From: Parafrankia irregularis | GTDB taxonomy: Bacteria; Actinomycetota; Actinomycetes; Frankiales; Frankiaceae | DNA length: 64,000 nucleotides | Assembly: GCF_001536285.1 (NCBI RefSeq) | Contig: NZ_FAOZ01000016.1 | Span: 62,001-126,000, forward strand | Reading direction: 5' to 3' | Made by a program: the position numbers and the translations under genes | Notes under the pieces: model-generated | What the model was told of the DNA's origin: nothing | Databases searched by the model: none | The model's input: only the letters and a program-made list of their open reading frames with translations | In this document: positions 13,904 to 24,758 of the stretch, in pieces | Position numbering within the stretch: the first letter of the stretch is position 1 | Layout of the letters: each line of letters begins with the position of its first letter

Positions 13904-16900
13904 TCAGGTCTCCGGGCGGAGCATGCGCGCGCGGCGTGCCGCGGGCATAAGGGGCGTCTGGATATACGCGTTGCCGACCGGCAGCTGCTCCAGCTCCTCC
14001 GAGAGGTCCTTGCCGGTACGGGTGCGCAGGAATCCGGCGGCCTTGCGGGACTGCGGGTAGTTGACCCGGTAGAGAACCTTGGTACCCGCGTTGGCGAGGA
14101 CGTCCGGGTGGAAGTCGTCGAGGCCCTGGCTCGCCACGACGACGACGACGCCGAACTTCCGGCCCTCCTTCATCAGCTTGGGCAGGGTCGCGTCCTTCGC
14201 GAGGCGATGCGCCTCGTCCAGGACGATGGCGAGCCGCAGCTGCCCGGTCTGCTCCCAGGAGAACATGTCCTTGTAGACCTTGCGGAGCAGGAACGCGCCC
14301 GCGGCGACCTGCGCCTGCTCGACCTCCGCGAAGCCGTGCAGGTCGACGACCAGACCTTCGCGGATCAGATCCTGCACGCTCGTCCCGGTGCTGTCGGTGA
14401 ACAGCCCGTACTCCAGCAGCGGTCGGCACCGGGCCAGCACGTTCGCTACCCCGCGCTCCTTCTCCAGGGCGGCGATCTGCTCCCGGACCTCGTCCAGGGT
14501 CGGAATTCCGCGCGGTGGGGTGAGCTGGCCCCAGCCGTGCGCCTCATAGCGGTTGATCAGTGCCTGGTACACGACGTCGCGTTGGATGTCGCCCAGCCCG
14601 CAGACGTAGGCGAAGATCTCCGAGATCGACAGCGCGTTCATCTTGTACGCATGCCGGCCGCCGTCCGCGGCGAGCTCGAAGGGGGAAAACGGCAAACCGG
14701 CGGCCGCGTCGTGCACGCGCAGCGACGCCGGGCGGCGCGGATCGGAACCGAACTGGCCGTGGAAGTCGATGACCAGCGCGGGCAGGCCTTCACCGACGGC
14801 GCCCTGAAGCAGCCGGATCGTCGTCTCCGACTTGCCCTGGCCGGGGATTCCCAGAATGAACAGGTGCGGGCTGCCGGTCGTGCTGGCCTCCCAGAGCACC
14901 GCCTCCTCCGGCGGAAGCGTCGTCCCGAGCCGCACCCGCACGACCTCCAACGCGCCCGTCGAGCCGTGGGACGCCGCCGAGTCGTCGGGCTCGGCCGAGT
15001 CGTCGAAACGGTCCGTAGCCGGGGCAGCGGAGGTGCCGGACACGCCGGAGGTGCCGGTGGCGGCGGTGGCAGTCGGGTCACCCGACGCCGCAGGGACCTC
15101 CGCGTTGGCCGAGGAGGCTGAACTCACTGGGCTCTCAGCTGCCGGGGCGTCCGCCCGCGGCAGGGGAGCGACGGGGACGTCCGGTGGGAGCGCAGGCACC
15201 CGTGGTGCCCCGGTCGGCGACGCCTGCGGCACAGCGGCTGGCGCCGGCGGCTGTTCGGCCACGGGTAGGTGTGGGCGCACCGACGGGTGCCCGGCCTGGT
15301 CCAACCTGTCGGGCGTGCTGTCGGTCCCCGGACCGGTGCCGGGGGCGAAGCGGTCGCCGTCCGCCGCCGTGGCCGTCAGCGTGCGGATGCGGGTCTCGCC
15401 CATGACGAACTCGTCCACACCGTCTCCCTGCTGGACGACGATGTAGCCGCTGCGCCCGTAGGTCACCGACGGCTCGACGGTGTCGAGCCGGTCGATGCCC
15501 TCCTGCATCCGGCTGAACGTCACCGCGTCGGTGATCAGCCCGCGCCGGGCCGCGCGCCGCAGGTAGTAGCGCAGCAGGGTGGCGAGCCGGGCCCGCTGCA
15601 GTGGCTGGTCGATCCGGGCTGGGTCGGCGAAGAAGAGCCGTTGGACGACCCCGATGGTCGCCTTGACCTGATCGTCGATCCCGCGGGCGAGATCCTCGCT
15701 TTCCAGCAGCCCGCGCGACTTCACCTCGACCGCCTCGATGTGCAGCCGACGTCCTGGGAAGCGCACCAGCAGCAGGTCACATCGCCGGGCCTTCTTGCCC
15801 GGCGAGAGACCACGGCGGGCCCGTGGCCCGAACAGGTCGAGATGCGCGTCGACTGGAATCACGATCGTGTTGGCGAGCTCGCCGCGCCGACGGAGCTCGG
15901 AGACGACCGCGGCGAGCGCGACGGCCTCCTTGGCGCGCTTGTCGTTGCCGGTCGCGGCGAGAATCAGCCGACCGGAGACGAGTAGCAGCTCCTCCACCAC
16001 CGACGAGACCGATTCGCCGGGCCGCTCGAATCCGAGCTCGCTCATCGCCTGCAGGAACATCTTCTCGACGTCGGCACGGTGGGCGGTCGTGATGGCCATC
16101 TGATGGCCGAGGCCGTCGAGGAACTCGGGCGCGTAGTCGAGGATGTAGCGCCGCCCGCCGGCGGGCCGCCGGGCCGGGTCGTCGAACAGGTCCAGGCCCA
16201 GGAAGCGGTCCAGGACGACGACCCAGTCGCACCGGTCGTGGGCGAGGTCGAGCACCCGCCTGGTGTCGCTGTCGACCCGGATTCGGATACGGGCCACCCC
16301 CGCGGCACCAGTGACGTCCGCGGCATCGGTCGCGAACACGCTGGAGACGCCCTCGGCGAACCGGCGATGCAGGTCGGTGACCGGCGCGGAGTCCGTCCCG
16401 CGAGTGGCGGGGAACTCGATGCCCGAATACCAGACCGGTCGGTCCGGGTCCGGCCTGGTGACCAGCTGGGTGATGAGCCCACGGAAGGAGACGCTGGCGC
16501 CGCCGGCCTCGGCGCCATCCAAGTGAAGCTCGGGGTGGCTGACGTCGGCGAGCACCGCCAGGTGCGCGGCGCGGGCTGTCTCGATCGCGTCCAGCGGCGC
16601 GGCGGAGATCTCCAATGCCGGGTCCAGGAAGCCGCGGCCGGGCCGGGACCGGTTGTCGCTTATGTCGTGCTGCAGCTCGCGCAGCCCGGGCAGCGGGTTC
16701 GTCTCCGACGCTCCCTCGCCGAACGCCTCGATCCAGACATGCGGCGCCGCATCCTCGTCCTCGCCCAGCTCACGGCCGCTTCCGCCGAGGTCGGCGCCGG
16801 CGCCGGCCTCGGGGTCGGCGGTGACGGCCCGTAGGGCCCCGCCGAGGAACGCGCCGCTGCCCGGGTTCGTCGCCAGGATGCGCAGGCGCTCCGGCCAGCG

Positions 16901-23800: not shown

Positions 23801-24758
23801 CGGCGAAGGCGTCCGCGGCGACCGCGGCGAAGGTGGCCGCCGACGGCTGCCTGCCGGCCCGGATCCGCCTGCGCAGCGTCTCCTGCCGCGGGCCGGGCGG
23901 GTGCATCGGGGCGACCCACATCTGGTCGTCGTTGACCCCGAAGTACGGGTCGACGGCGAACACCCGGCGCAGGTGCGCCAGGCGCTGCAGCGCGTCGAAC
24001 TCCCGCAGGATCAGCTGGTCGCTCGCCTTGAGCTCGGCCTCGGTGAGGCCCTGGCGCTCATAGGTGAGCAGCACCCGCACCGCGCCGGCGGAGTGCCGGC
24101 CGACATAACGTCGGCCGCGTGGGGTCGGCTCGATGTTGCCGATGATCGTATAGGCGCCGAGCGTCGTGGGTGTCTGTGGCCGCGGCCGCAGGCCGGTGAC
24201 AGCGGACAGCACCGCGGCGCGGAAAGGGGCGAGGTCGAAACGCGCGCCGACCGCACGGTCGATCTCCAGCAGGCGCTGCTCGCAGCCGGCCAGCCGCACG
24301 ACGTGGCTCGCCGCCCGCGGGTCCTCGATCTGGAAGGTGACCTCGGGGGAGGACAGCACGACCAGCGGGTGGACGAGATGAAGCTGCTTCTGACCGGGGG
24401 GTGCGGCGTGGCGCAGCGCCGAGGCGAGCGGCTTGTTGAACCGGGTGAGGCTGCCAGCGAGGATCCGCGCGACGCCGACCGCCTGGTTGATCGGGTTACC
24501 GCGTTCCAGCCCGGTCCTACGCTCGTACCAGCGCTCCTCGGTACCGATCAGGTCGACCCGCCAGGACTTCTCCTCCACGACGATGACGCTGTTCGGCCCG
24601 ACCAGGATGAAGTCGGAGTCGCGGGTGCCCGAGCCGGCGACGAGCTGACGGCCGCAGACGAGCGTCCACCCGTCGTCCAGGTGGTCTCGCAGGTAGACGG
24701 CGGTCTCCTGCTCACCCGGGCCACTCCACGGACCATGGACAACGATCTTCGCCACCAT
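20844..24758 (-). CDS. NERD / pseudokinase / Ser-Thr kinase / P-loop ATPase fusion
   Basis: First gene of the operon, 1304 aa. The N-terminal NERD nuclease-related domain (about 1-110) has DSDFILVG and VIVVEEKSW (D49, E62/E63, K64). A degenerate kinase domain (about 215-455) carries HRALHPSR and SDF in place of HRD and DFG. A complete kinase (about 470-720) has LGDG, K504, HRDLSPGN (D592, N597), DFG (610-612) and APE (632-634). The C-terminal ATPase (about 760-1304) has Walker A GNPGDGKT (821-828) and a CGSCAVEQRC metal-binding-like cluster, resembling DptF. The NERD-kinase part recalls PglW of BREX type 2. The ATG at 24758 follows GGAAGGAG; the open frame upstream is low complexity. Likely role: sensing and phosphorylation-controlled activation of the downstream ATPases. 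Confidence 0.85.
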   Translation of the reverse strand: MVAKIVVHGPWSGPGEQETAVYLRDHLDDGWTLVCGRQLVAGSGTRDSDFILVGPNSVIVVEEKSWRVDLIGTEERWYERRTGLERGNPINQAVGVARILAGSLTRFNKPLASALRHAAPPGQKQLHLVHPLVVLSSPEVTFQIEDPRAASHVVRLAGCEQRLLEIDRAVGARFDLAPFRAAVLSAVTGLRPRPQTPTTLGAYTIIGNIEPTPRGRRYVGRHSAGAVRVLLTYERQGLTEAELKASDQLILREFDALQRLAHLRRVFAVDPYFGVNDDQMWVAPMHPPGPRQETLRRRIRAGRQPSAATFAAVAADAFAGLADIHDEGITHRALHPSRVWVTPETNGVMFSDFLIAKIADARTVHDADEVDHDGGPYRAPECRRTAHLAINPSDVYSLALCLLDWWELRQADPPREPQAPPSLPDRVRDVLDACFASAPQDRPSAREVADRLGAHLAEERKRAVRLAPGVRVGKYELVRQLGDGATATTWLMIDRAFDVQHTLKIMKSAELMDNLRGEFTLLHKLKHDRIVRIHDYLLEPPGPALISEYVEGRTVGQLAERLRGNPAAARRILADILDALEYAHGHGVLHRDLSPGNIIVDEDDRATLIDFGVASRADTDAHSMVGTLPYLAPEIVADGAWSPAADLYSLAVLVFEALVGRPPYAVDGQQRNKFQLVPPTPQEATEAGVGGTRFLEVLARASDPDPANRFPSAAELRDAIDVVFAPPPPPPDPPVVDPIVVMRPDPAPRPKPPANPVPRGLVVNPAVDEIRQLFRNSRLGNRGNRGLDSEFADQTYIETRLDERLAPRIIDGRPTLVVFSGNPGDGKTAFLERLGVALRERGAHVLESDAAGWRMALDGHEFASVYDASESHEGVSADELLRRALDPLNETSRAGRYTALIAANDGRLLDFLDHEAHRYPQIAAVLGDGVAGPGTDTAGVLRIDLKGRSMASAGQATGSLTVRMLNGLLTDDLWAPCGSCAVEQRCPIRANARGLGDERAQDRLHRLVLTSHLRRGRRPTIRDLRSALAYLVTVDLGCAEIHAEFGDGLGNPARPERHFSMAAFDAAAGHDRLLDEWRALDPAAVPAPQVERSLAPGTRSAAEVVRAKRLRYFTATDAELAAVDHLGPYRHLDEFRALLAGTHSANGAAPDGVADAMVPRLLRGLSRCVGPVGYDGDGVAVSVGEPTENGGEVVKVLPLDEFEVVVEPVDDRFVETAPDVVMLRHRSGQVDLPVDVDLFELLMRANAGFLPTNPEVAPLREELGLFRAGLTLQPASRVIIIEPNGRRNIINVTGTTIELLRDAR

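What the first reader, a model, noticed from the sequence alone, without database searches (positions are those of the whole stretch)
13904..24758. Candidate undescribed defence operon: kinase-fused DptF-like ATPase, unknown partner, DptH-like HerA/nuclease
Three leftward genes, joined by two ATGA overlaps, encode a NERD/pseudokinase/kinase/ATPase fusion (1304 aa), a 551-aa partner and a 1763-aa HerA-type ATPase with a nuclease-like motif. Gene order, sizes and motor positions recall DptF-DptG-DptH. The N-terminal NERD-kinase part recalls PglW of BREX type 2. Neither a phosphorothioation (dndBCDE) nor a methylase (pglX) gene is in the window. This looks like a stand-alone or hybrid restriction system whose ATPase is controlled by phosphorylation.
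Basis: partly seen in the sequence, partly recalled or inferred. Interest (0 to 1): 0.88.

Follow-up and report, generated by a model that had tools for sequence, protein, structure and literature searches.

The report
Orphan MADS-type kinase-restriction operon
Three joined genes of a Frankia-family soil bacterium encode the restriction half of a described phage-defence machine (MAD6-7-8, a kinase-fused cousin of DndFGH/SspFGH) with no DNA-marking partner nearby, so it is a member of a known kind whose way of sparing its own DNA is an open, testable question.

Summary
Three leftward genes (F 20844-24758, G 19192-20847, H 13904-19195) overlap by ATGA twice and encode 1304, 551 and 1763 aa. They are not undescribed. 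NCBIfam names F as MAD6 (528 bits, cut-off 460) and G as MAD7 (429, cut-off 410); H is a sub-threshold MAD8/DndH. The F core matches SspF (E 3e-22). NERD plus inactive plus active kinase fused to DndF, and stand-alone DndFGH, were described in 2024 (PMC10853773).

What is distinctive is context. The Frankia-type trio forms a clade separate from true MADS. It lacks MAD1-5, and no DndC, MAD2 or ARMADA-type methylase homologue was found in this genome. Relatives sit beside an ARMADA-like module (twice), an Eco57I-type methylase, two DUF1156-like methylases, or nothing. All catalytic motifs are intact, dN/dS is 0.19-0.30, and a congener with 95% identical flanks has lost the operon by a 10.6-kb deletion.

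Best reading: a HerA-driven restriction module with a built-in kinase switch and spare NERD nuclease. Activity is untested. Published SspFGH and DndFGH damage DNA of cells lacking the modification, so how this orphan spares its host is the question worth testing.

The parts
20844..24758 (-). gene F: MAD6-type NERD/pseudokinase/kinase/SspF-DndF-core fusion, 1304 aa
   Evidence: NCBIfam MAD6 528 bits over cut-off 460; PADLOC mad6 1e-55
24354..24716 (-). NERD nuclease domain (residues 15-135), D49..E62-x-K64 intact
   Evidence: Pfam NERD 1e-14; motif D-(D/E)xK in all 14 homologues
23409..24161 (-). pseudokinase (about residues 200-450): HRALHP in place of HRDxxP
   Evidence: sequence and alignment
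22569..23345 (-). active-type Ser/Thr kinase (residues 472-730): K504, E518, H590/D592/N597, D610-F611
   Evidence: Pfam Pkinase 9e-49; invariant residues
20847..22481 (-). SspF/DndF-type P-loop core: Walker A GNPGDGKT, ND motif, Zn-binding CxxC..C lid, C-terminal alpha+beta part
   Evidence: PADLOC SspF 2.8e-22, DndF 0.004; AF2 model with helical lid, pLDDT 62 only
19192..20847 (-). gene G: MAD7, DndG/SspG-like partner, 551 aa
   Evidence: NCBIfam MAD7 429.5 bits over cut-off 410; SspG 2e-6 at C-terminus
13904..19195 (-). gene H: MAD8/DndH/SspH-like nuclease-translocase, 1763 aa
   Evidence: N-part MAD8 45 bits, below cut-off 175; PADLOC DndH 5e-27, mad8 7.5e-16; SspH 3e-4 for the middle part
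15701..15838 (-). PD-(D/E)xK nuclease motif in H: D1140 ... E1157-V-K1159
   Evidence: invariant in 13 homologues
13946..14953 (-). HerA/FtsK ATPase domain in H (residues 1415-1750): Walker A GIPGQGKS, DE, sensor Q1690
   Evidence: Pfam DUF87/TrwB; PDB DptH 7es4 and HerA profile hits
13784..13838 (.). near-perfect hairpin between the 3' end of H and the convergent MpaB-like gene, probable two-way terminator
   Evidence: fold -63.3 kcal/mol, z -6.9
14249..24825 (.). segment deleted in the close congener G004, which keeps the last ~345 bp of H as a scar
   Evidence: blastn junctions; H residues 1649-1762 at 95.6% in G004

Best explanation
The operon is the restriction module of a MADS-like, kinase-fused DndFGH/SspFGH system, present here without any modification genes. 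Inferred working: G (DndG-like) and the middle of H bind invading DNA, the HerA domain of H drives along it, and the PD-(D/E)xK nuclease of H nicks or cuts it. The P-loop core of F acts as the nucleotide-dependent switch of the complex. The kinase fused to F sets the complex on or off by phosphorylation, and the NERD domain is a second or backup nuclease. Shown here: gene layout, family membership of the parts, intact catalytic motifs, purifying selection, patchy distribution, one clean loss, and the absence of the tested modification families. Inferred: defence activity, complex formation, kinase role and mode of self-recognition.
For: MAD6 and MAD7 curated matches. F core to SspF at 3e-22; H to DndH at 5e-27 and PDB DptH 7es4. 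A full MADS locus has the same F-G-H order and sizes (1391/557/1858 aa). Motifs of NERD, active kinase, Walker A, PD-(D/E)xK and HerA are conserved down to ~25% identity; the exception is the Rhizobium kinase VAIK lysine. dN/dS 0.19-0.30. Published: SspF, SspG and SspH are each needed for defence (PMC8092258), DndFGH has nickase and translocase activity (PMC11662687 abstract), and a phage kinase inactivates DndFGH by phosphorylation (PMC12345140).
Against: No experiment on this lineage. H is only a sub-threshold MAD8. AF2 models of the F core and G are low confidence (pLDDT 62 and 56), and fold search of the F core found nothing significant. The immediate neighbours are metabolic genes, not a defence island. 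No modification partner was found, although related restriction trios need one to be harmless.
Confidence: 0.72

Rival explanations
1. The trio is one half of a two-part system: it needs a DNA methylase encoded elsewhere in the genome (in trans) to protect the host.
For: Related trios lie next to methylases of four unrelated types: MAD2, ARMADA-like IIG in P. soli and F. nepalensis, Eco57I-type in Armatimonadota, two DUF1156-like in Rhizobium anhuiense. Published SspFGH is toxic without its modification. This genome has a self-contained type IIG enzyme on contig C4 and two small N6 methylases.
Against: No MAD2 above cut-off, no DndC, no ARMADA methylase homologue in this genome. The type IIG candidate is a complete enzyme of its own. 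The ARMADA methylase is common in trio-less Frankiaceae: 11 of 30, against 4 of 5 with the trio. Cytosine-5 and N4 methylases were not searched for.
Confidence: 0.3
2. The trio stands alone: the built-in kinase (or the F nucleotide switch) keeps the nuclease off until infection, so no DNA mark is needed.
For: No neighbouring methylase in the window, G401, CiP1 or R. phaseoli; all motifs intact and under purifying selection; DndFGH often stands alone (PMC10853773); phosphorylation switches DndFGH off (PMC12345140).
Against: No direct evidence that this kinase acts on the complex. Full MADS, which has a methylase, carries the same kinase, so the kinase is not there only to replace a methylase.
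Confidence: 0.35
3. A decaying remnant: the trio lost its modification half and is now silent or on its way out.
For: Congener G004 has deleted it; F. nepalensis H is broken and truncated after about residue 566.
Against: All three frames open, all catalytic motifs intact and dN/dS 0.19-0.30 in the window copy.
Confidence: 0.15
4. It is a BREX type 2 (Pgl) fragment with a PglW variant.
For: NERD-pseudokinase-kinase front shared with PglW.
Against: PglW matches only that front (128 bits, cut-off 990). The rest of F is SspF-type; G and H match MAD7/SspG and DndH, and no pglX-type neighbour was found.
Confidence: 0.02

Closest known systems
MADS (methylation-associated defence system, MAD1-8; Maestri et al. 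2024, paper itself not held, named by NCBIfam and PADLOC)
   Same: MAD6-MAD7-MAD8 in the same order, sizes, domains and catalytic motifs; MAD6 and MAD7 above curated cut-offs
   Different: No MAD1-5; only ~25% identity; separate clade in F and H trees; H below the MAD8 cut-off
Kinase-NERD-fused DndFGH, stand-alone form (Rakesh, Aravind and Krishnan 2024, PMC10853773)
   Same: Same F architecture (NERD, inactive and active kinase, P-loop core with Zn lid), triple operon, HerA and REase in H, no modification genes
   Different: The published text names no Frankia examples that I could check; neighbouring ARMADA or DUF1156-type methylases are not mentioned in the parts read
SspFGH (PMC8092258)
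   Same: F core matches SspF, G C-terminus SspG, H middle SspH
   Different: SspFGH works with phosphorothioation by SspBCD; the DndC family rings nowhere in this genome
DptFGH/DndFGH of the Dnd system
   Same: Gene order, sizes, HerA of H (DndH 5e-27; PDB 7es4)
   Different: No DptF, DptG or DptH NCBIfam match; no DndC
PglW of BREX type 2
   Same: NERD plus tandem kinase front
   Different: C-terminal half and partner genes unrelated; far below the PglW cut-off

Membership tests
MADS | MAD6 kinase protein | tested here: met
   528 bits, cut-off 460
MADS | MAD7 | tested here: met
   429.5 bits, cut-off 410
MADS | MAD8 | tested here: inconclusive
   45 bits, cut-off 175; PADLOC mad8 7.5e-16 but DndH 5e-27
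MADS | MAD2 DNA methyltransferase and MAD1, 3-5 genes | tested here: not met
   No MAD2 over cut-off in the genome; no MAD1-5 match in the 64-kb window or the 10-14 kb beyond it
Kinase-fused DndFGH (PMC10853773) | NERD + inactive kinase + active kinase + DndF P-loop core with lid | tested here: met
Kinase-fused DndFGH (PMC10853773) | DndG and DndH partners with REase and HerA in one operon | tested here: met
Kinase-fused DndFGH (PMC10853773) | three winged-helix domains in DndG | tested here: inconclusive
   AF2 model of G only pLDDT 56
Dnd / Ssp phosphorothioation restriction | linked or resident phosphorothioation genes (DndC family) | tested here: not met
   no TIGR03183 match in five trio genomes
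BREX type 2 | PglW at curated level with PglX and PglZ | tested here: not met
   PglW 128 bits, cut-off 990; no N6 methylase on this contig; PglZ not searched
Any of these | protection against phage or plasmid | not testable with these tools
   needs plaque or transformation assays

The most novel reading that the evidence does not exclude
The kinase-fused FGH trio is an exchangeable restriction module that either joins unrelated methylation modules (MAD1-5, ARMADA-like, Eco57I-type, DUF1156-type) or, as here, runs with none, its own kinase replacing DNA marking as the safety catch.
Probability: 0.25. Interest if true: 0.65.

Novelty: new member of a known kind. Interest (0 to 1): 0.38.

Why it matters
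Published SspFGH and DndFGH damage the DNA of cells that lack the modification (PMC8092258). Here a complete, selectively maintained cousin sits in a genome where the tested modification families are missing, and it carries its own protein kinase. That makes one open question directly testable: does this class of restriction complex need a DNA mark, or can phosphorylation keep it safe?

Tried and rejected
Obligate ARMADA partner: adjacent only in P. soli and F. nepalensis, absent from this genome, and common without the trio. Phosphorothioation partner: no DndC. Viral carriage: none found in viral contigs. Structure route: AF2 models from 5 sequences were low confidence and the PDB fold search of the F core was not significant; sequence profile search of G in PDB empty. 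tblastn of G against plasmids empty, although H then led to the Rhizobium trios. The genome-contig scan found only four relatives because it depends on short exact peptide patterns. The original MADS paper is not in the library, so statements on MADS rest on NCBIfam and PADLOC names and the loci read here.

Full report
CHECK OF THE OBSERVATION. Pfam finds NERD, two kinase matches and a P-loop in F, nothing in G, and a HerA/TrwB-type ATPase at the C-terminus of H.

WHAT IT IS. NCBIfam names F as MAD6 (528 bits, cut-off 460) and G as MAD7 (429.5 bits, cut-off 410). H matches MAD8 below cut-off (45 bits, cut-off 175). PADLOC gives mad6, mad7/SspG and DndH/mad8; the isolated F core matches SspF at 2.8e-22 and DndF weakly (0.004), and the middle of H matches SspH. 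A complete MADS on a Piscinibacter plasmid reads HTH, N6 methylase, AAA ATPase, 215 aa, 443 aa, kinase (1391 aa), 557 aa, 1858 aa. So MAD6-7-8 and this trio have the same build. The 2024 paper of Rakesh and colleagues (PMC10853773) describes DndF fused to NERD plus an inactive and an active kinase, DndH with REase and HerA, and DndFGH as a stand-alone system; a 2026 paper (PMC12839542) notes the same front on PglW. The 'undescribed' claim therefore fails.

ANATOMY. Alignments with relatives down to ~25% identity keep, in the window copy, NERD D49...E62-x-K64; a pseudokinase with HRALHP instead of HRDxxP; an active kinase (K504, E518, H590, D592, N597, D610-F611); Walker A GNPGDGKT, an ND motif and a Zn-type CxxC..C in the F core; D1140...E1157-V-K1159 in H; and HerA Walker A, DE and sensor Q in H. 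dN/dS against P. soli is 0.30 (F), 0.19 (G) and 0.26 (H). AF2 models were too weak to add much: the F core shows a P-loop sheet, a mostly helical middle and an alpha+beta end at pLDDT 62, and G reaches only pLDDT 56.

DISTRIBUTION. The MAD7 family occurs in 6 of 35 genomes of the order and 3 of 396 sampled in the phylum. Five Frankiaceae carry the Frankia-type trio (G 66-88% identical), among them Parafrankia soli, Frankia sp. CiP1 and F. nepalensis; G429, G112 and G198 carry canonical MADS with MAD2. An Armatimonadota MAG has a trio ~30-33% identical, and two Rhizobium plasmids have a more distant one. Trees of F and H separate MADS, Frankia and Rhizobium with full support; the Armatimonadota trio joins the Frankia clade with 98/97 in H and 91/92 in F.

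CONTEXT. The window has no modification gene. Its neighbours are MpaB-like, AMP-ligase, regulator, hemerythrin and kinase-GGDEF genes. The own genome (99.7% complete) lacks MAD2 above cut-off, DndC and the ARMADA-type methylase. It has one self-contained type IIG enzyme and two small N6 methylases on other contigs. In relatives the trio lies head-to-head with an ARMADA-like operon (RapA/DrmD-like helicase, IIG methylase, YprA/DruE-like helicase; ARMADA as in PMC12458937) in P. soli and F. nepalensis, with an Eco57I-type methylase in Armatimonadota, and upstream of two DUF1156-like methylases in R. anhuiense. In G401, CiP1 and R. phaseoli no methylase is next to it. The two ARMADA-like neighbours are only 37-47% identical to each other, so the juxtaposition probably arose twice. 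The ARMADA methylase is nevertheless common without the trio: strong matches in 15 of 35 genomes, 4 of 5 with the Frankia-type trio and 11 of 30 without. It is not an obligate partner, and shared defence islands could explain the proximity.

LOSS. Congener G004, with 93-97% identical flanks, lacks window 14249-24825 but keeps the last ~345 bp of H: a deletion scar. G004 has no MAD7. F. nepalensis H is interrupted and matches only to residue 566. The system is dispensable and is lost now and then.

MECHANISM. Most likely, G and the middle of H recognise DNA, HerA translocates it, the PD-(D/E)xK domain nicks or cuts it, the F P-loop core is the nucleotide switch, the kinase sets activity and NERD is a backup nuclease. 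Only the parts list is shown here. Published support: SspF, SspG and SspH are each essential; SspFGH alone damages DNA of cells lacking the modification (PMC8092258); and a phage kinase inactivates DndFGH by phosphorylation (PMC12345140). These facts make an intact trio without a found modification partner a real puzzle. Three readings remain: a methylase in trans (0.30), kinase-gated stand-alone action (0.35), or early decay (0.15). Full MADS carries both a methylase and the same kinase, so the kinase did not arise only as a replacement for a mark.

VERDICT. Observation confirmed; interpretation partly supported; a new member of a known kind (kinase-fused DndFGH, MAD6-7-8 type), not MADS proper because MAD1-5 fail the test. 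Interest is moderate, mainly for the testable self-recognition question and the changing methylase neighbours.

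Noticed in passing
window 28595-33610 (-) and 51571-56484 (-): Two paralogous giant proteins (1671 and 1637 aa) fusing a Ser/Thr kinase, an AAA_16 ATPase and a GGDEF diguanylate cyclase (GAF also found in the first), about 18 kb apart.
   Followed up: partly
window 8868-10040 (-): IS605-type TnpB gene absent from the same place in congener G004, so a recent insertion; a similar TnpB-like ORF lies about 20 kb from the trio in P. soli.
   Followed up: partly
window 13772-13886: G004 has 1455 bp here with an alpha/beta-hydrolase-like gene in place of 116 bp, so both sides of the trio are variable.
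   Followed up: partly
window 18913-18965: Six copies of a 9-bp repeat encode a (DSD)n acidic tract near the start of H; length change would stay in frame.
   Followed up: no
L007:5836-7956 and L009:12387-14519: An AIPR/AbiU-like gene accompanies two actinobacterial MADS loci, in G198 inserted between MAD5 and MAD6 on the opposite strand.
   Followed up: no
L073:21100-22913: In Bacteroides finegoldii the MADS genes are followed at once by a PP2C phosphatase and a Fic protein, a possible counterpart of the MAD6 kinase.
   Followed up: no
L077:5888-8883: Rhizobium anhuiense trio followed by two DUF1156-like DNA methylases, the first with a MerR/excisionase-type HTH.
   Followed up: partly
L069:8535-17557: Own genome, contig C4: type IIG restriction-methylase (1712 aa) near a PDC-M36A candidate defence gene.
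   Followed up: no
L063, L057, L064, L062, L053, L011: Frankiaceae ARMADA-like operons often have a Ser/Thr kinase gene alongside.
   Followed up: no
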